Source of the DNA: Spiroplasma turonicum
Lineage (GTDB): Bacteria; Bacillota_I; Bacilli_A; Mycoplasmatales; Mycoplasmataceae
DNA length: 64,000 nucleotides
Assembly: GCF_001262715.1 (NCBI RefSeq)
Contig: NZ_CP012328.1
Coordinates: 744,001-808,000 of the forward strand
Direction of reading: 5' to 3'
Shown here piece after piece: positions 52,380 to 63,319 of this stretch; the stretch's first letter is position 1, and the number at the start of each line of letters is the position of its first letter. Made by a program: the position numbers and the translations under genes. The notes below the pieces were generated by a model. The model was not told the DNA's origin, did no database searches, and saw nothing but the letters and a program-made list of their open reading frames with translations.

Positions 52380-54113
52380 TTATAAATGTAAATCTTTTTT
52401 AATGAATACAAAATATGATGAAATATAACATGATATTGATATTATAATTAAAAATATTATTTTTGATATGTATTTTGAAACTTCATTTGCATTTGTCATA
52501 TTAAAGTTTGTAAGTGAATTTATTGATAAATATTTTAAAACTTTTAAAGAGTCCACTGTTTGTCCTAAAACAGCGAAAAAGAAAAATATAACACATAAAC
52601 CACCACCAACAGCTAATGATATTGCACTTTTATTAAAAATACTACTACATAAGAATACTATTGAAATTAAAGCAATTAATAATAAGTATAATCCTAAGAA
52701 ATTAATTATTATAATTCCTATATCAACTGAATTTGATTTACTTGATGCTAATATTAATATTATGTTAAATATAAATAAAAGCAATATTGATAAAGTATAT
52801 CCAAGTATTAATGTAAACATTTTTGTTAAAATTATGCTTTTTCTAGATTGATTTGCAATTAATATATTTACCAAAGTACCCTTCTCAACTTCACTAACCA
52901 GAATTGAGTTACCTGAAATTATAATATGCACTAAATATATTAAGAATATAAATGAAGTTGAACTAGTTATACTTCCAGCTACTAAACCTGAAACTGAAGA
53001 GTCAGAATCACTACTAATAAAACTATCAGAATATAATGTAAATCCTAATATGCTTGAACTAAATAGAATAGTCATTAAAGTTGTGACTAATCAATATATG
53101 TAATGTTTTCTCAAAGTAACTGTAAATAAGTTATGTTTTTTTGATTTAGTTTTGATTAAAGTTTTTTCAGCACTTTGATTTATGCTTTTTTCTTTGGTTT
53201 GATCATAGTAACTCATAAAATAATCTTCTAGATCAAATTTTATTTCTTGTATCTTGACAACATTAAACGTTGATAAAACATCAATTAATTTATTGTGATC
53301 GTCATTATTAATTTCAACTTTAAAATCGTTTTTACTATAACTGATGACATTTATATTTTTATTAGATAATTGTTCAATATTAATACTATTTTTAACTTTT
53401 ATTATGTATGAACTTTTATTACTTTGTTGTAATTCATTTATATTAATCAATGAAATTATTTTACCTTGTTTAATAATTGCTACATTATCACATACTTTTT
53501 CAATCTCTGAGAATACATGTGAAGAAAGTATAATTGCTTTACCTTCATTCTTAGATTTATTTACTAAATCTATAAATTTTTGTTGCATCAAAGGGTCTAG
53601 ACCAGTTGTTGGTTCATCTAAAATTATTATATCTGGATTATGCATTCAAGCTGTAATTAAAGCAATTTTTTGTTTATTACCTTTTGATAATTTTTTAATT
53701 TTTATCGAAACATCAACATTTCAATATTGTATTAATTCATTTACATAGTCTCAATTATCTAGTTTTCTTAATCCATAAATTTCTTTAATGAATTGTATTC
53801 CTGTTAAATTTTCTGGAAATGCAATTTCTCCAGGTACATAACCTACTTTTCTATTTACCTTACTAGAATCAGTCCATGAATCATATGAAGTAAATTTATT
53901 TATTTTATCTTCATCAATTAATATATTTGCATTTCCAGATGTTGGTTTAATAAAACCTAATAAAGCTCTAATGCTTGTAGACTTACCAGCACCATTTGGC
54001 CCTAAATAGCCAAATACACTACCATAATTAATTATTAAATCTATATCAAATATACCATAACCATTTTTGTATTTTTTTGTTAATTTCTTTGTTTCTATAA
54101 CATTTTCTTTCAT
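52380..54113 (-). CDS. ABC exporter with ATPase and permease fused in one protein
   Basis: 577 aa in one frame; UGA Trp codons at 53751 and 53091 make it look like three ORFs. ATPase first: Walker A GPNGAGKST at about residue 40, signature LSKGNKQKI, Walker B IIILDEPTTGLDP, H-loop LSSHVF. Residues 225-340 are a linker typical of ABC-2 ATPases, then six spans (residues 345-577: SFIFLIYLVHIIISGNSILV, FLGLYLLLIALISIVFL). This is the ABC-2/NatAB-type layout but with both halves fused ATPase-first, which is uncommon. Substrate unknown; possibly a peptide or drug. Preceded by a GGAGG ribosome site and by the membrane protein at 54137. Confidence 0.88.
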
Positions 54114-54939: not shown

Positions 54940-56397
54940 CTAAGTAAACCAGTTATTTTATAAATGTTGTTTTTTTTGATCAAATATATTATATTTCAAA
55001 AATTGTAATTTATTAAAGTTATAAACAAATTTTCTAAAAGTATCATAAAAATTTGTATATTTTTAAATTTACACCCAAAAGTTTTAAAAAACTTTTCTTT
55101 TACTCATCTATTTAAACTTTCGGTTGAGGCGTTATTTAAAAACTCTTCTAGACATAGAATGCACTATATTATTATTCTTATTTACATATTCAAATATTTT
55201 TTTACATGAAAAAGCTAAACCTTTGCCAGATTGTATTACTTTGTTTGATTTAGTGTTTATTGAATACTCATTTATTCTATTAAAAACCTTTAACGAGCTG
55301 TTTGAATTTTCGTTTTTATCAAAGTTATATGCAACAATAGTTTTTAAATCCCAGTCATAAGATATCATGCAATTTAATTTTGTTTTATAAGAAGAATTAT
55401 TTAATTCTATTTTTAGATTAGTACCATCAACTCCAACTACATTAGGAGTATTGTAATTCATTTAAATCAAATCATCTCTAACATAAGAGTTATGTTTTTT
55501 AGATTCATTGAAATAACTTGATTTTTTAAAATTATCCCTACTAAATAAGTTTTTAAATATCTTAGGTTTTTCTCTTTTGATAAGGTTAATCATTTTTTCA
55601 GAGACTCTTCTATTCTTATTAACAAAAATTCATCTCCTTATTAATAGATAACCTGTTTGTAAATCATTATTTGCTTCTTTAAAATCTTTTTCTAAATCTA
55701 CTGCATTTTCAAATCTTTCATTTTCAAAGCTATTAATAGTTGGAATCTTTAGCTTGAATTTGTATAACAAAATAGGGTTTTCTAATTTTAATCTTATTTT
55801 AAATTTCGAATATGTATTTTTATGAACTTTAAAATACTTTATTAACCTATTGGTTCCCATAACATAATTAGCAATTAAATAATATATTTGAAATCTTACA
55901 TAATATTTATAAGCTTTTGTTGCCATTATCATTATCTTTTCCTTCTTGCTCATTTTCAATAAATTCATCAATATTGTTGCCGTGCAAGAAGGAATGGACT
56001 TTTCCAATATTTCTTTACTCGCTATTGCTAACATTTTTTCTTCAATCTCAAACTTTAAGTTTTTTTTCTAATTTTTTTATTCGGTCCTTAAGTAATTTAT
56101 TTTCTTTATTTTTTTCTTTAAGTTCCTTAGAAATAAAATTTTTTTTAACTTTTGACTCATCAATTTAACCTCTTTGCAATCCTTATATATAATATAAGAA
56201 TAACAAGATTTTGAGGACTTATATCAGATTCTTATTAATTGCTATCCTGCTTTAATATTTAAATCATTAGCTATTTTGTCTATATTTTCGCCGTTTTTGT
56301 ACCTTTTTACGGCTTCAGTTTTTTTATTCTTTTCATAAATTTTTGGCATTATTTCCTTTCTATCAAAAAAACCAGTAATTTTATACTGGTCTACTTA
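54940..56397 (-). mobile_element. IS3-like insertion sequence, third type (decayed)
   Basis: Ends related by inverted repeat: CTAAGTAAACCAGT at 54940 and the complement of CTAAGTAGACCAGTAT at 56397. The orfA-side end includes an ACCAGTA...TACTGGT hairpin with T tail, which here also serves as terminator of the ABC ATPase gene at 56431. Solitary copies of that end are at 4567-4617 and 25157-25205. Confidence 0.78.
54990..56347 (-). pseudogene. Transposase of the third IS type (broken)
   Basis: The ATG ending at 56347 follows AGAAAGGAAATA. A readable stretch from 56034 to 55465 (LEKSIPSCTATILMNLLKMS, VMGTNRLIKYFKVHKNTYSK) ends in TAA at 55462; it resumes at 55461 with PNVVGVDGTNLKIEL (catalytic Asp) and shifts frame near 55140 before LNNASTESLNRWVKEKFF (catalytic Glu region). 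Not functional. Confidence 0.78.
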
Positions 56398-56430: not shown

Positions 56431-57138
56431 TTATTTATTAATAATTTCAATATTGTAATATTTTATTAATCTCTTTCTTAAAGACCCGTGTTCTTTTAAA
56501 ATTTGGCTCATTTTTTTATCTTCAAAAACTACACCATCTTTTAAAATTATAACTCTATCACATAATTCTTCAACTTCTTCAGGTATATGAGAAACAACTA
56601 AAAGTGATAAGTTATTTTTATTTTTGTAATTTTTAAAATAATTAACTAATTTTATTTGCATTTCTAAATCTAAACCAGTTATAAGTTCATCAAGTATTAG
56701 TACTTCAGGTTTATTTATTATAGATAAAAAACAATTTGCCCTTTGCCTTTCACCACCAGATAAAGAGTCAATTGTTTTATTTATAAACTTTTCAAGACTA
56801 AAAGAAGCAACTAAATCATTAAATTCATCTGTTTTTAAAAATGCTTTATTTTTATAAAATTTAACTAAATCCAAGATTTTAGTTCCTGGTGGTCAACTTC
56901 CATCTTGAAATTGCATACCAACTCTTTTTTTAATTACATTGTTTGTGGCATCATCAATGTATTTTACTGTTCCAGAAGTCGGTTTTAATAATTCTGCGAT
57001 AATTTCAACTAAAGTTGTTTTACCACTCCCATTAGAACCAATAAATGCAACAGAAGAATTATCTTTAATAACCAAATCTACATCTTTTAAAACATGCTTC
57101 TTACCATAAAATTTATTTACTTTTTCAATTTTAATCAT
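56431..57138 (-). CDS. ABC transporter ATP-binding protein
   Basis: 235 aa. Walker A GSNGSGKTT (about residues 35-43), Q-loop MQFQDGSW, signature LSGGERQRA, Walker B VLILDELITGLD, H-loop VVSHIPEE. The Glu after Walker B is present (LDE). It drives the permeases encoded at 57156 and 60669, last gene of the six-gene glycosidase operon, 17 bases after the permease gene. Its transcript probably ends in the IS hairpin at 56397. Confidence 0.93.
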
Positions 57139-57155
57139 AATACTCCTTTTTATAA

Positions 57156-57992
57156 TTACTTTCTAAGTGATATATTGAAACTATAATAACTTAATAAAGA
57201 AATTGTTGATAATAAAATAATCATAGAAAATAATGGAACAAATATATTCTTAAATGCAATAATAATATCAATATTATTCACAATTTTAAATAAGTTCTGC
57301 CCACCTAATCATGAGTTAGTATATGCTATATAAAAAATTCAGTTGAAATATTTTTGGGGATTCAAATAACTAATAATTTGATAAAAAGTACTGTTATAAA
57401 ATTTCAGATCCATTAATGCATCTGAAGTAAATAATGTAAATAATAAAAATAAAATCATCAATGACTGTACAATATAAATATTTCTTAAAAAACCAGAAAT
57501 TAATATTGACGTTAAATAAACATAAATTATCATTAAAAAAATATTAAATATTACCATAACTACTGATGCGCTACTGAATAGTTTAACAAACATATCTATA
57601 ACCATACTTGTGCCTCTTATTTTATCTATTGATAAAAATATAGACAAAATTATTATAAGAACTCCAAGTGAGTATATTAAATAAACAACAAATAGTGATA
57701 ACAAAAATGTTAATTTATTTATTCCAAAATTTTTTAATTGTTTTATAAAGATAGTTTCTCTTCAAGTTATTATTAAATATGAAATAAATAATGAAGAAAT
57801 ATTTAATATGAAAAAAATAAATGGCATTATTAATATTAATCTTTTTGAAGACAAATAATTATAAATATAATAATTATAAATAAGTAATCCAAAAATTAAA
57901 GGCAATATTAAACAATATATATAAGTATAAATGTTTAATAAAGTTGTTTTAAAAATATATTTTACACAATTATTAAAATTAGTTATTTTCAT
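57156..57992 (-). CDS. ABC-2-type permease, downstream copy, 278 aa
   Basis: Six spans (for example ILIMPFIFFILNISSLFISY, FVVYLIYSLGVLIIILSIFL, LMILFLLFTLFTSD). The segment TSDALMDLKFYN and the following IISYLNPQKYF match SDTLLDPNLFN and IIGYLNPAKYF in the permease at 60669, so the two are diverged paralogues that probably form a heterodimer with the ATPase. It starts two bases before the stop-proximal region of the GH85 gene ends (57994), i.e. immediately adjacent. Confidence 0.87.
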
Positions 57993-57993
57993 A

Positions 57994-60669
57994 TTAAACT
58001 AGATTTATAAAGAATTTATAAATCTTACCTTCCTTATCATTTTTATATATTGGTTTTATTGCAATATTTAATTTACCATCAATTAATTCTAAATCTTTTA
58101 AATAATACTGTAATTGATTTGTTTCACCAATTTTATAATATTCATTTTCATTTGTGTATATTAATATATCAAAATAACTTAACGAATCTAAATTATCACT
58201 ATTTCAATTAAATCTTAAACTATATTTATAAGTATTTTCAAAATCACGATATATTATATATTCAGATTTAACTTTTGAAATAATTACTTCTAATTTTTTA
58301 TCTTTATAGCTTATATCAGAAATACTTAATTCACCAACATTAAGTTTAAAATCTTCTGAATTTGGTTTAATATTTAGTCCAACCATAGCTAATGGGTTGT
58401 TCTCTGAAATATTTATGTTATCTAAGTTTAAAGTGATTCTTCTTCAACCATTATCTAACTTTTCAACTTCATCGGGTTGAATACTTTTTATAGTTTCATT
58501 ATTTAAATTTCCTAAATTATCTGCAAATGATAATCTAAATGAAACTAATGTATTATTATCTTTGCTATTATCTTTATAAACTATATTGATTTTCTTTTTA
58601 TTATCTTTAATATTTGTACCAATTATATCTCAACCATAGGTTTCATTTAAGTCTCAAGATGATGAGTTTAAAATTTCTCCTGCCTCATTAAAACCATTAC
58701 CGATTACAATTGAATTACCTTTTTTATAGACTTCATCATAGTCATAACCACCAGAAAATTGATTGATTGGTAAAGCAGTTTTTGGATTTTTTACATTAAA
58801 AAATCTTCATTTATAAGTCGGTAGTATGTCAGCTAATCTTCTGTTTGTTCAAGGATATTCATTAAAAACATTTGCATTAACAAATTTTATACCACTACCA
58901 GTTGAAAAGTTAGTTTTTAAATTATTATCTTTAATATTTTCATCATTAAATACTGTTTTTTCCTGAATTAAATTACCAATACCATAACTATTAGTATTAA
59001 TATTTTTTTTATTTGTAGAAAAGTCATAAATGTTTTCAAGTATATTTTTATTGACTTCATATTCTTCGTCAAAATGAATTCTTGGATCTGCTTTAATAAA
59101 CTCACTTCTATAATCAATACCATTAGTATATTTTTTTAATTTAGATGCATTTACACCGTTGTCATCTTCACTTAAAAATAAATTTGTTCCACTATATTGA
59201 ATATCATTAAATAAATGACCAACTTGTGCTTCAAATATAAATTTTCTATTATCAGATAAGTCTCTTGTTGTTAATTTTAAAGCAGGCAATGCAAAACTTC
59301 CTGAACCTTCATCTAAATAAGTAGAGAAACTGCTGTAAATTGATTTGTCATAAACAGCGCCATTATTTGCAGAATCTGCAGATTTTTTATATGCTAAATT
59401 TCTATAGTCATATGATCCTGATATATATCCATTATATCCACCGTCAATCATTGTATATAAATTTTCAGGATTGTAGTCTGGGTTTTGCTCTAAAAAGTGG
59501 AGCGCTCTTTCTGGTAATTCACCAAAATTAACTTGTAATTCAGTTAATTTATTTACATTTTCGTCTTTATAACCTGTTGAAGCCATTCTTACTGTTTCAT
59601 TATCATAATATTTATTACCATTATAAGATACAGTTGAATCATTTCTATAGTATATTAGATTTAAGTTTTTTATATCTTCATTTTTAGAAAGTGCTGTTTT
59701 AGCATTAAAATCTGAAATAATTTTTGCCATTACTTCATAATCTAATACAGTGCCATTTGGACTAACTCCATTAGATTCATTATTTATAAACCACCCATTA
59801 AAACCAATATAATTAGCAATTTCAATTAGTTTATCTACAATTAAATAGTTACCATTAGAATCTTTTTTAACAAAATCTTTTATCATTTCTTTTGTTAAAC
59901 CATGATAACCATCTAAAAATATATTTCCAAATATTTTTGAGCCATTTAAGTGTGCTAATTCAATAACATCTGCTGGTGGTGGAATAATTGGTCCTTCAAA
60001 TCAAGAACCAGATCAATTAATAAATATATTATTGTATTGTCAGTTTAAATTTGTATTTTCAAAAGGGTTTTTTGTTCCAACAATTGTATTGTCAAAAGTT
60101 CTATGCTTTCTGGTAGAAAATCCTAAATAATTATATTTAAGTTTTTGGTCTTGAGTACTAACATTTTTAGCTGAAGTAAATTCAGATTTTAATAATTTTT
60201 TTTCTGATTTATTGTACTTAGAATCATTATCTACATTTGGATCTCAATCTAATATTGAATTTAATCTTCTAAATGATTGTGCTGGTGAATTAGTTCCAAA
60301 ATCTTTTGCATAATTACCATTTGGCATAAAACCTTTATTTAATGGAACTCCAGTTACTGCTTGTTTATCAATATTTTGTTTTCATTGAAAACCAGTATTA
60401 AAATTATTATAATCAATGTAATTACCAACATTGTCATAAGTTACTTCTCCTAAATTTTTAACATCTGTATTAATTTCATCAACTTTATTTACATCGTCGT
60501 AAGGATCGAAATTTGTTCCATCTCCAAGGTTTGGATCTTTTCAATTAAAGTTTTCTAAATCTTTAATGTAATTTGAATCCTTACTAAAATCTAAACTACA
60601 TGATATAGATTGAGTTACAAAAACTATTGGCAATGAAGTCAATAATAGTACTGATAATAGTTTTTTCAT
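57994..60669 (-). CDS. GH85 endo-beta-N-acetylglucosaminidase lipoprotein
   Basis: 891 aa. Signal peptide MKKLLSVLLLTSLPIVFVTQ and lipobox SISC put it on the cell surface. Residues 200-560 form a GH85 barrel: GPIIPPPADVIELAHLNGSK, FGNIFLDGYHG, and FNGWFINNES with catalytic pair N296 and E298; then beta-sandwich domains. GH85 enzymes cut between the two core GlcNAc residues of N-glycans, releasing host high-mannose or related chains. The start codon overlaps the stop of the upstream permease (TAATG), so they are coupled. Position between two ABC permeases suggests release plus transport of glycans or export of the enzyme system. Confidence 0.9.
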
Positions 60670-61520
60670 TATTTTTTAACCCCCCATTTAAAGAATTTAA
60701 TATATAAAAAGATTGATAAAACAATAAATGCAATTGATGGTATTATAGTTGAATAAATATTAGTAAATGGTGAAAAACTACCTTGAAAATATTTTTCAAT
60801 TATTTGAGTTATTCCATAAAAATCATAAAATGTATATGAAGTAAATAACATTCCAGTTCATATAAAATATTTTGCAGGGTTTAAATAACCAATTATTATA
60901 TAAAACATATTTTGATTAAATAAATTCGGGTCTAATAAAGTATCGGAGAATAAAACTGTCATTAGAATAAACACTATTAAAAAAATTATATTAAAAGCTG
61001 ATTTTGTAAAAATAGAACTTATTAATAAAACTATTACTGTTAAAAATATAATAAGTAAGATTAAATTTAAAAAGAAAATTGAAAAAACAAAGCTATTTAA
61101 ATTGCCCAATATTGAAGAATCGATAATTAAAATATCGTAATTTATCAATATACTAAATATTAATAAATTTAATAAAAAACTAAGAATAAATAGAATAGAA
61201 TTTAATATTATCAAAACTACACCAAAGTTATAAACATTAATTTCTCCTAATTTAAGCTTTAATAAATACATTCTTTTTTTTCATTCAATTATAACTAAAC
61301 CGATATAAAAAGATGTGCAAAATATTGAGATACAAAATAAGTTCATTAATAATGGAGGTAATATTAAATTATAATTAATATTATAGTTAAAAAATAAGAA
61401 TAAAATAAATAAGAATGATGATAGAACAAAGCAATAAATATAAGTTTTTAAACTTAAAAAAATATTTTTGAAAACTAAATTAAACAATATCATAAATGAT
61501 ATAAAATTATTTTTTATCAT
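60669..61520 (-). CDS. ABC-2-type permease, upstream copy, 283 aa
   Basis: One frame through UGA codons at 61281 and 60855. Six spans; KKRMYLLKLKLGEINVYNFG loop, then FSDTLLDPNLFNQNMFYIII and YLNPAKYFIW as in the paralogue at 57156. AGGAGTTAG in front of the ATG; it starts four bases after the anchored-protein gene and its stop overlaps the GH85 start. Confidence 0.87.
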
Positions 61521-61524
61521 ATTC

Positions 61525-62280
61525 CTAACTCCTATTTTTTATAAAAACAAAATTATATAAATTGTCAATAAATTCTTTTAATACACCATTAATCCTAGTA
61601 ACAGGAATTGGTTCATTATTATTAAAAATTGGTGGCAAATCTCATCTTTCTCTTCCCAATTCATCACCTCTAATATAGCTTCCAAAAGTGTAAAAATCTA
61701 TGCTTAAAGGTTTTTCAACAGTTCTACCCAAATCTTGGACTCAGATTTTTAATCAATTAAAAAAAACTAAAGCATTAAAATATTTGAATGATCATAAAAC
61801 AATTTCACTTGTAGGATTTATTAGATTATTAAAATTTCCTTTAATATAGTTAATTTGAGCTTCAATAAATAAAGACTTCAATAAATAAGCACTTTGAAAT
61901 TGAACTTCATCTGAATTATAAATATCTTGAAGTAGATTATCAAGTTCATAGTTTGGTACTCCAAATTCATCTTTATTACCACTATATTTATTATCCTTAT
62001 AGATTGAAAATAATCTAACATAATTAGAAGAATAATAATTTGTTATCCTACTTGAAGAATTATTCAATTCATCAAGAGTCTTTTCTTGTAAGTCTTCTCA
62101 AATATTTAAATAATCATAAGATGTATCAGGTCAAATATCATTTTTTCTAATTATTGTTTCTAAACGACCTTCTAGTGTATAATCTATTTTCTTAAATGAA
62201 GATATAAATAATGCAATATTTATGATAAATACAATTATAATTGGAAGTAATAATAATAATAATTTAAGTTTTGCTTTCAT
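61525..62280 (-). CDS. N-terminally anchored extracellular protein, 251 aa
   Basis: One span (MKAKLKLLLLLLPIIIVFII), then a soluble outer domain rich in Tyr, Asn and Trp (WPDTSYDYLNIWEDLQEKTL, FGVPNYELDNLLQDIYNSDE, FNWLKIWVQDLGRTVEKPLS). Good GGGGAT ribosome site. Part of the GH85 operon between a lipoprotein and a permease; it could be a binding or assembly component. Family not recognised. Confidence 0.75.
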
Positions 62281-62296
62281 AATCATCCCCTATTTA

Positions 62297-62878
62297 TTAA
62301 TTGATATAAATATTTTTTATAAATCTCAAGTTATATATATATTTATAACAGTTAGAAGTTTCGTTAAAAGTAATTACTTCTTGATTTACAAATAATGTAA
62401 AATAGTTATTTCCTTTCTTGCCTTCAATTGAAAAGAAATAGTTTATTCACTCATAATCACTTTCTTTATTTTTATAACTATCAATAACATAAAATATTTC
62501 TTTTAATTCATTAGAAAATGATGCATACTCACTTGAGAACTCACCATTAACAAGTAAAAATGTGCCTTTATATGAATCAATGTCATATTTATACTGATCT
62601 TTATCAGTATATTCATTAGAAGGTGTATCAATATAATCCTTTGTCAATTTTTTGTCAACAATACTTAATGGTGACTCATCATCTTCATTGTAAATTGTAG
62701 TTATTTCATTTTTTAGTAGATTTATTACATTTAAATCGGTCTTTTTTTCTTTATATTCTAATTCTTTTGGATTTGAATTTATTGTATCTTGTGAATAATT
62801 TGTTGTTTCACCACAAGAAATAACATTTAAACATAAAAAAATAACAAAAAAATTTATCAAAAAAAATTTTAATTTCAT
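62297..62878 (-). CDS. Lipoprotein, 193 aa, first gene of the GH85 operon
   Basis: MKLKFFLINFFVIFLCLNV with lipobox VISC. I choose the ATG at 62878, seven bases after GGGGAA, over the one at 62890. The mature part is acidic (KTDLNVINLLKNEITTIYNE, LLVNGEFSSEYASFS) and ends in a strand-rich segment (NYFFSIEGKKGNNYFTLFVN) similar in pattern to the lipoprotein at 25278. Likely exposed on the surface; function unknown. Confidence 0.8.
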
Positions 62879-63319
62879 AATATTCCCCATATAAATATAT
62901 TAACATAATAATGAATTATATTAAACAAAATATATTAATTAAAAATTTACAAATAAAAAGTAAAAACAAAATTTTTTTTACATTACAAAAATGTTTTATT
63001 AATAAAATAATTTATACATTATTTAAAAATTACTTTTTATTAATTTTATATGCAGTTACAGTCTTAATGTATAATATATAAAAAATAAGTAATTATAGTT
63101 ATAAATAAAGGTATTGCTACTCAAATTTATGAATAATTTTTATCATAATATAATAAAAAACCAATGATTTTACATTGGTCAAACAAATTATTTTTATTAA
63201 TAATTTAATTTTCAAAAATTACTTTATATATGAATACAATAATTTTTTGTAAATATTTTTTGAATTTAATATTTTTTGAATTTAATATTTTTTTAATTAA
63301 TTTTAAATTGTTGCTAATT
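62879..63319. other. Intergenic: operon promoter region and terminator
   Basis: AT-rich spacer between the GH85 operon and the PTS gene. It contains a terminator (63155-63180) and should contain the operon promoter, but no -35/-10 pair stands out. No gene seen. Confidence 0.5.
63152..63182 (-). terminator. Rho-independent terminator of the PTS gene
   Basis: GACCAATGTAAAATCATTGG then TTTTTTATTATA on the minus strand, about 140 bases after the PTS stop codon. Confidence 0.8.

What the first reader, a model, noticed from the sequence alone, without database searches (positions are those of the whole stretch)
57994..60669. Surface GH85 N-glycan endoglycosidase embedded in an ABC transporter operon
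A lipid-anchored GH85 enzyme with its N-x-E catalytic pair lies between two paralogous permeases, an ATPase, an anchored protein and a lipoprotein, with overlapping start/stop codons. The set has no classical sugar-binding lipoprotein and its permeases look like ABC-2 exporters. It could cleave host N-glycans, or the ABC unit may export or extract the lipoproteins.
Basis: partly seen in the sequence, partly recalled or inferred. Interest (0 to 1): 0.62.

Follow-up and report, generated by a model that had tools for sequence, protein, structure and literature searches.

The report
Surface N-glycan-cutting enzyme with ABC transporter
A horse-fly spiroplasma carries, as one operon, a surface enzyme predicted to cut sugar chains off host proteins together with an ATP-driven membrane machine, and the same partnership recurs across dozens of insect-associated relatives although apparently nobody has described it.

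Summary
The window is from the Spiroplasma turonicum Tab4c chromosome (length match; genetic code 4). Window 57994-60669(-) encodes an 891-aa lipoprotein with a GH85 (ENGase) domain and an intact N-x-E catalytic pair. It sits in a six-gene unit, lipoprotein / single-span protein / permease / GH85 / permease / ATPase, bracketed by two intrinsic terminators.

The pairing is not local. In this bacterial family 53 of 57 GH85 genes lie within 6 kb of a permease of this family. GH85, ATPase and permease trees recover nearly the same architecture classes, so the set is inherited as a module. In one genome the ATPase has moved away but is retained. The permease has the ABC-2/type V fold, and no solute-binding protein is present. 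Outside this group GH85 sits in classical N-glycan uptake/degradation loci.

GH92 and GH125 mannosidases are absent from all 60 genomes, and GH38 shows no association with GH85. So ordinary sugar scavenging is unlikely to be the general role.

Best reading: an ATP-driven surface deglycosylation complex that works on host glycoproteins. The module is well supported; the mechanism is inferred. Lipoprotein export is not supported.

The parts
57994..60669 (-). GH85 endo-beta-N-acetylglucosaminidase, lipid-anchored, 891 aa (code 4)
   Evidence: Pfam PF03644 E=2.5e-24; PDB GH85 enzymes E to 1.6e-52; lipobox Cys24
59776..59784 (-). codons of the catalytic pair N296-x-E298
   Evidence: N 55/55 and E 54/55 in relatives
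59797..59799 (-). codon of N291, Asp in 54 of 55 relatives: a change unique to this copy
   Evidence: alignment of 55 GH85 proteins
60669..61520 (-). permease 1, ABC-2 / type V fold, 283 aa; shares one base with the GH85 start
   Evidence: AlphaFold2 pLDDT 94, pTM 0.91; structural matches to KpsM, NosY, ABCG, ABCA, Z 16-19
57156..57992 (-). permease 2, paralog of permease 1, 278 aa
   Evidence: Pfam ABC2_membrane E=1.6e-5, just under cut-off; reciprocal similarity to permease 1 family
56431..57138 (-). ABC ATPase, 235 aa, Walker A, Q-loop, signature, Walker B with catalytic Glu and His intact; family-specific DELITGLD instead of DEPTxGLD
   Evidence: Pfam ABC_tran E=1.6e-24; alignment A5
61525..62286 (-). 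single-span protein with extracellular helical domain ('TMX'), 253 aa
   Evidence: orthologs in 12 other type A loci; model pLDDT 90 without a convincing PDB match; distant homology to anchored proteins of type C modules (prob 93.5) and, via type C, of type B
62297..62890 (-). small lipoprotein ('LPX'), 197 aa; accessory, not part of the conserved core
   Evidence: found directly upstream of TMX only in G000, G005 and G010; paralogs near some other modules
63159..63180 (-). terminator-like hairpin upstream of the unit (after the PTS gene)
   Evidence: 8 pairs + T tail
56369..56392 (-). terminator-like hairpin closing the unit
   Evidence: 9 pairs + T tail

Best explanation
The locus encodes an envelope complex that is inherited as a module: a surface-anchored GH85 endoglycosidase, a type V (ABC-2 fold) ABC transporter of two paralogous permeases and an ATPase, and a single-span extracellular helical protein (TMX) as probable adaptor. 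Shown here: the composition, the operon, the conservation, the co-inheritance, the intact catalytic and ATPase motifs, and the permease fold. Inferred: GH85 cleaves the chitobiose core of high-mannose or paucimannose N-glycans on arthropod host glycoproteins at the spiroplasma surface. ATP-driven movements of the ABC unit, passed on by TMX, power turnover of the complex (release of bound glycoprotein or product) rather than uptake of sugar as food. This would parallel ATP-driven machines coupled to a surface or periplasmic partner (NosDFY, YbbAP-TesA, MIB-MIP with the F1-like X0 ATPase), helping the cell evade or remodel host surfaces and haemolymph proteins.
For: 53 of 57 GH85 places in the family lie within 6 kb of a permease; also 5 of 5 in a second family f5. 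GH85, ATPase and permease trees recover the same architecture classes, except that class C is not a clade in the permease tree (Mantel r 0.57-0.69, p=0.0005). The five operons that seemed to lack the ATPase all have one of this family: four adjacent, and one (G011) about 375 kb away that groups with type A ATPases. N-x-E conserved, ATPase motifs intact, permease of ABC-2 fold, no SBP in the unit. GH125 and GH92 absent in 60 of 60 genomes; GH38 in only 8 of 33 GH85-positive genomes and not associated with GH85 (Fisher p=1). The GH38 of this genome sits with a fructose/mannosylglycerate-type PTS and sugar genes, not with GH85. In G004 a GH85 without the ABC unit is flanked by two GH38 genes, so the two settings look distinct. 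Precedents: PMC12994834, PMC12646458.
Against: No experiment shows GH85 activity, complex formation or host targets for any spiroplasma. In other bacteria the transporter next to GH85 is an importer, so uptake cannot be excluded. Other mannosidases or phosphorylases (GH130, GH76, GH47) were not searched. The copy in this window has N291 in place of a nearly invariant Asp next to the catalytic pair, so its activity is less certain than that of its relatives. One architecture (type D) has a single permease and no recognisable TMX.
Confidence: 0.45

Rival explanations
1. N-glycan import: GH85 releases ManxGlcNAc and the ABC unit, although of ABC-2 fold, takes the oligosaccharide into the cell; TMX or GH85 itself serves as the substrate-binding part. 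The ABC-2 unit would have replaced the usual binding-protein-dependent importer.
For: GH85 in a related mollicute family (L109) is followed by MalF/G-like permeases and a MalK-type ATPase, and in Acholeplasmatales by MalF/G-like permeases; in Streptococcus pneumoniae EndoD product is imported by NgtS-P1-P2 (PMC5215778).
Against: No solute-binding protein; ABC-2/type V transporters are overwhelmingly exporters (general knowledge); no GH92 or GH125 in any genome and no GH38 in 25 of 33 GH85-positive genomes.
Confidence: 0.25
2. Export or extraction pump: the ABC unit removes hydrophobic peptides or lipids (for example host antimicrobial peptides) from the membrane, as lantibiotic-immunity LanFEG/LanI systems do, and GH85 acts in the same defence on glycosylated host factors.
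For: Similar part list (ATPase, two small ABC-2 permeases, lipoprotein); ATPase scores against DrrA (E=2.7e-34) and lantibiotic-protection models; structural matches include lipid and drug exporters.
Against: The scores are generic to ABC ATPases and none reaches a curated cut-off; the ATPase keeps the Q-loop Gln, whereas LanF-type ATPases are reported to carry Glu there (from memory); no reason why such a pump should be tied to a GH85.
Confidence: 0.15
3. The ABC unit exports, sorts or releases the lipoproteins.
For: GH85, LPX and some partners are lipoproteins encoded in the same unit.
Against: GH85 lipoproteins occur without the unit; GH85 has its own signal peptide; the ABC unit is linked to GH85, not to lipoproteins in general; the fold is ABC-2, not the LolCDE/MacB type.
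Confidence: 0.05
4. The genes are neighbours without functional link, kept together by module-wise duplication and transfer.
For: Flanking genes of type A modules differ between species, so the block changes location as a unit.
Against: Linkage persists over several genera plus a second family through several rearrangements of order and strand; the displaced ATPase of G011 is retained.
Confidence: 0.06

Closest known systems
GH85 endoglycosidases (PDB 3fha/3fhq; EndoD of Streptococcus pneumoniae)
   Same: Catalytic barrel with N-x-E pair, downstream beta and Fn3-like regions
   Different: Lipid-anchored; coupled to an ABC-2 unit; this copy has N291 for the usual Asp
Pneumococcal N-glycan system EndoD + NgtS-P1-P2 (PMC5215778)
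   Same: GH85 functionally paired with an ABC transporter
   Different: There: solute-binding protein and importer permeases, with GH92, GH38 and GH125; here: ABC-2 permeases, no binding protein, no GH92/GH125
MIB-MIP with F1-like X0 ATPase of mycoplasmas (PMC12994834)
   Same: Surface enzyme acting on host proteins, in multiple paralogous sets, tied to an ATP-driven machine; mutating the ATPase abolishes the effect there
   Different: Protease and F-type ATPase, not glycosidase and ABC; the paper found no homologs in Spiroplasma, Mesoplasma, Entomoplasma or Acholeplasma
YbbAP-TesA of Escherichia coli (PMC12646458)
   Same: ABC transporter in complex with an extracytoplasmic hydrolase
   Different: Type VII (MacB-like) ABC and a lipase/thioesterase
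NosDFY(L)
   Same: Permease fold match (Z about 16.5); ABC-2 unit with extracytoplasmic partner and lipoprotein
   Different: Partner NosD serves copper-site assembly (from memory); no glycosidase
Lantibiotic immunity LanFEG/LanI
   Same: ATPase, two small ABC-2 permeases, lipoprotein (from memory)
   Different: No enzyme; no lantibiotic genes here; Q-loop differs

Membership tests
GH85 endo-beta-N-acetylglucosaminidase | Match to the GH85 profile above curated cut-off | tested here: met
   86.8 bits against cut-off 22.2
GH85 endo-beta-N-acetylglucosaminidase | Catalytic Asn-x-Glu pair | tested here: met
   N296, E298
GH85 endo-beta-N-acetylglucosaminidase | Asp five residues before the catalytic Asn (DGW[FL]xNxE); usual but not known to be essential | tested here: not met
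   N291 in this copy, D in 54 of 55 relatives and in 3fha/3fhq; consequence unknown
GH85 endo-beta-N-acetylglucosaminidase | Hydrolysis of the chitobiose core of N-glycans | not testable with these tools
   needs an enzyme assay
ABC-2 / type V ABC transporter | Six-helix ABC-2 fold without large extracellular domain | tested here: met
   model pLDDT 94; best matches ABCH, ABCG, KpsM, NosY, ABCA with Z 16-19
ABC-2 / type V ABC transporter | Functional ABC ATPase motifs | tested here: met
   Walker A, Q-loop, LSGGE, DE, His switch
Pneumococcal-type N-glycan import system (Ngt + EndoD) | Solute-binding protein and BPD_transp_1 permeases | tested here: not met
   none of the six genes matches
Pneumococcal-type N-glycan import system (Ngt + EndoD) | GH92 / GH125 / GH38 mannosidases for the released glycan | tested here: not met
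   GH92 and GH125 0 of 60; GH38 of this genome lies in a separate PTS cluster
LanFEG/LanI lantibiotic immunity | ATPase with E-loop (Glu instead of Q-loop Gln) | tested here: not met
   Gln invariant at position 78 of the ATPase; the E-loop criterion is recalled from memory
YbbAP-TesA (type VII ABC + hydrolase) | MacB-like type VII permease | tested here: not met
   whole permease aligns with the ABC-2/type V fold and has no large extracellular domain
MIB-MIP / F1-like X0 | F-type ATPase alpha/beta-like subunits with MIB and MIP | tested here: not met
   none among the six genes

The most novel reading that the evidence does not exclude
Insect-associated mollicutes evolved an ATP-driven surface deglycosylation machine, in several parallel versions per cell, in which an ABC-2 transporter either mechanically powers an endoglycosidase on host glycoproteins or imports whole N-glycans without a binding protein. 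Either would be a new use of the ABC-2 fold, and the first would be a glycan-directed counterpart of MIB-MIP.
Probability: 0.4. Interest if true: 0.8.

Novelty: new variant of a known kind. Interest (0 to 1): 0.62.

Why it matters
Which molecules spiroplasmas use at the interface with their arthropod hosts is poorly known. A module tied to GH85, which is present in 33 of 60 sampled species of the family and often in two or more diverged versions per genome, is a strong candidate. It links a defined enzymatic activity (N-glycan cleavage) to an ATP-driven machine, so the coupling is directly testable. The open-access papers searched mention the enzyme only as an annotation (for example SPE_0847/SMM_0801 in PMC9666726), and none combines GH85 with Spiroplasma.

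Tried and rejected
Sugar scavenging as the general role: tested through GH38, GH92 and GH125 in 60 genomes; not supported.

Apparent loss of the ATPase in five operons (three of them counted as missing): an artefact of my ORF picking in four; in the fifth the gene has moved.

TMX fold: the model is confident, but Foldseek gave no match with E <= 0.001 and VIA-align gave only low Z (best 7.4, coiled-coil-like helices), so its fold class stays open.

TMX to type B anchored proteins: direct profile comparison weak (prob 7), better through type C (type C to type B 99; joint TMX+type C profile to type B 95); reversed controls under 1. Homology is likely but not certain.

A Pfam call with a wrong stretch of L009 was rejected and not repeated. 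The genome-contig scan gave only five loci, because few degenerate patterns could be built.

Circularity: the permease profile was built from GH85-linked permeases, so their top scores are expected; the independent direction (GH85 found by Pfam, then its neighbours) is the one that counts.

Full report
WHAT IS THERE. The window lies in a 1,261,374-bp one-contig genome. That length is exactly the one published for the Spiroplasma turonicum Tab4c chromosome, isolated from a horse fly (PMC4653801). The organism reads TGA as Trp. Gaps are 10, 4, -1, 1 and 17 bp. Strong terminator-like hairpins on the same strand flank the set (63180-63159 after the upstream PTS gene, 56392-56369 after the ATPase); 5 terminator-like sites on both strands against 0.7 expected, one of them a weaker same-strand hairpin overlapping the ATPase gene. 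A single transcription unit is therefore likely; it was not measured.

THE ENZYME. GH85 matches Pfam PF03644 at E=2.5e-24. A family profile matches solved GH85 enzymes at E down to 1.6e-52, over the catalytic barrel and again over the downstream domains. The catalytic Asn and Glu are present and conserved in 55/55 and 54/55 relatives. This copy alone has Asn291 where the others have Asp, five residues before the catalytic Asn. Its effect is unknown.

THE TRANSPORTER. Permease 1 alone matches no Pfam family, permease 2 matches ABC2_membrane weakly, and relatives match ABC2_membrane and ABC2_membrane_3 down to 8e-14. The AlphaFold2 model of permease 1 (pLDDT 94, pTM 0.91) aligns over almost its whole length with ABC-2/type V transporters: ABCH-9C, ABCG, KpsM, NosY and ABCA, Z 16-19. 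The ATPase has all canonical motifs, with a family-specific DELITGLD in place of DEPTxGLD. TMX models confidently as one membrane span plus a helical extracellular domain, without a convincing structural match. Profile comparison relates TMX to anchored proteins in other architectures: TMX to type C prob 93.5, type C to type B prob 99, reversed controls under 1.

CONSERVATION. GH85 occurs in 18 of 20 genomes of the genus and 33 of 60 of the family. I fetched the surroundings of these genes and read the gene order. Six recurring architectures appear: (A) TMX-ATPase-permease-GH85-permease, with the ATPase at different places, as in this window; (B) anchored protein-ATPase-permease-permease-GH85; (C) ATPase-permease-permease-anchored protein-GH85; (D) GH85-ATPase-permease; (E) ATPase-permease-GH85; (F) anchored protein-ATPase-permease-GH85-permease. 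In an independent whole-genome search, 53 of 57 GH85 places have a permease of this family within 6 kb. The exceptions are two copies in G004, one in G011 and a broken one in G019. Five of five GH85 loci in a second family (f5) also carry the unit. Trees of GH85 and ATPase each recover classes A-E as clades (class A weakly in the GH85 tree, support 0.29), and the permease tree recovers all but C; distances correlate (Mantel r 0.61, 0.69, 0.57; p=0.0005 each). The module therefore duplicates and diverges as a unit. Several genomes hold two or more versions; this one holds three GH85 genes and a type D set at 600-618 kb.

A TEST OF THE LINK. Five operons first seemed to lack the ATPase. A genome search found it adjacent in four (missed by my ORF picking). 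In G011 it lies about 375 kb away, near a recA-like gene, and groups with type A ATPases. A gene that moves yet is kept supports a functional link over mere neighbourhood. Of the GH85-negative genomes, G002 and G013 were checked for the ATPase and have only a distinct paralog, which in this genome is an ATPase+permease pair beside dnaJ/dnaK.

WHAT GH85 SITS WITH ELSEWHERE. In mollicute family f7 (L109) GH85 is followed by MalF/G-type permeases and a MalK-type ATPase; in Acholeplasmatales it sits with MalF/G-type permeases. In further Bacilli it sits with binding proteins, ROK kinases and glycosidases in some loci and beside unrelated genes in others; none of ten loci examined has the ABC-2 permease. 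This resembles the pneumococcal N-glycan pathway, in which EndoD product is taken up by NgtS-P1-P2 and mannosidases follow (PMC5215778). The ABC-2 pairing is thus special to the spiroplasma group, as far as sampled.

WHY NOT FOOD. In 60 genomes GH125 and GH92 are absent and GH38 occurs in 15, independent of GH85 (8 of 33 against 7 of 27; Fisher p=1). The GH38 gene of this genome lies with a fructose/mannosylglycerate-type PTS, a ROK kinase and GH1 genes, which suggests PTS-imported mannosides (my reading of the neighbours). In G004 a GH85 without the ABC unit is flanked by two GH38 genes, as expected for a scavenging locus. The ABC-linked GH85 genes generally lack this context. Families GH130, GH76 and GH47 were not tested.

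HOW IT MOST LIKELY WORKS. I commit to a membrane complex in which GH85 cuts N-glycans of host glycoproteins at the cell surface and the ABC-2 unit supplies ATP-driven motion (or product release) through TMX. Shown: parts, fold, motifs, linkage, co-inheritance. Inferred: physical complex, host target, direction and nature of the ATP-driven step. Precedents for coupling an ATP machine to an extracytoplasmic partner or enzyme are YbbAP-TesA (PMC12646458), MIB-MIP with the F1-like X0 ATPase (PMC12994834; no homologs found by its authors in Spiroplasma) and NosDFY (fold match). Uptake of the glycan remains the main rival.

NOVELTY. GH85 enzymes and ABC-2 transporters are known, and ABC-hydrolase complexes are known in another ABC type. 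A GH85/ABC-2 module was not found in the searchable open-access literature (subscription papers not covered). I call it a new variant of a known kind, with a serious chance of being more.

Noticed in passing
L009:8839-10414 (own genome, about 937 kb): A GH85-free ATPase+permease pair of the same ABC family lies just downstream of dnaK/dnaJ; permeases of similar score, away from GH85, occur in most genomes of the family, including many without GH85.
   Followed up: partly
L110 (Spiroplasma poulsonii MSRO_BK), L112 (Spiroplasma ixodetis SHM): Both carry broken copies of the module: GH85, permease and ATPase in fragments; in L112 several same-sized 273-aa frames, possibly mobile elements, lie between them.
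   Followed up: partly
window 59797-59799: Asn291 replaces an otherwise nearly invariant Asp beside the catalytic pair, only in this copy.
   Followed up: partly
L121:9168-11807: GH38 mannosidase with a fructose/mannosylglycerate-like PTS, EIIA, ROK kinase and GH1 about 13 kb from the GH85 operon.
   Followed up: partly
L039 (G004, 165-183 kb): GH85 without ABC unit flanked by two GH38 genes: a classical-looking N-glycan locus in the same genus.
   Followed up: partly
window 52380-54113: 577-aa single-chain protein with ABC ATPase followed by a membrane domain.
   Followed up: no
window 55132-56034: Two adjoining frames that look like a broken transposase directly downstream of the operon.
   Followed up: no
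L050 (G011, about 822 kb): A GH85 lipoprotein alone among LPX-type lipoproteins, without ABC genes.
   Followed up: no
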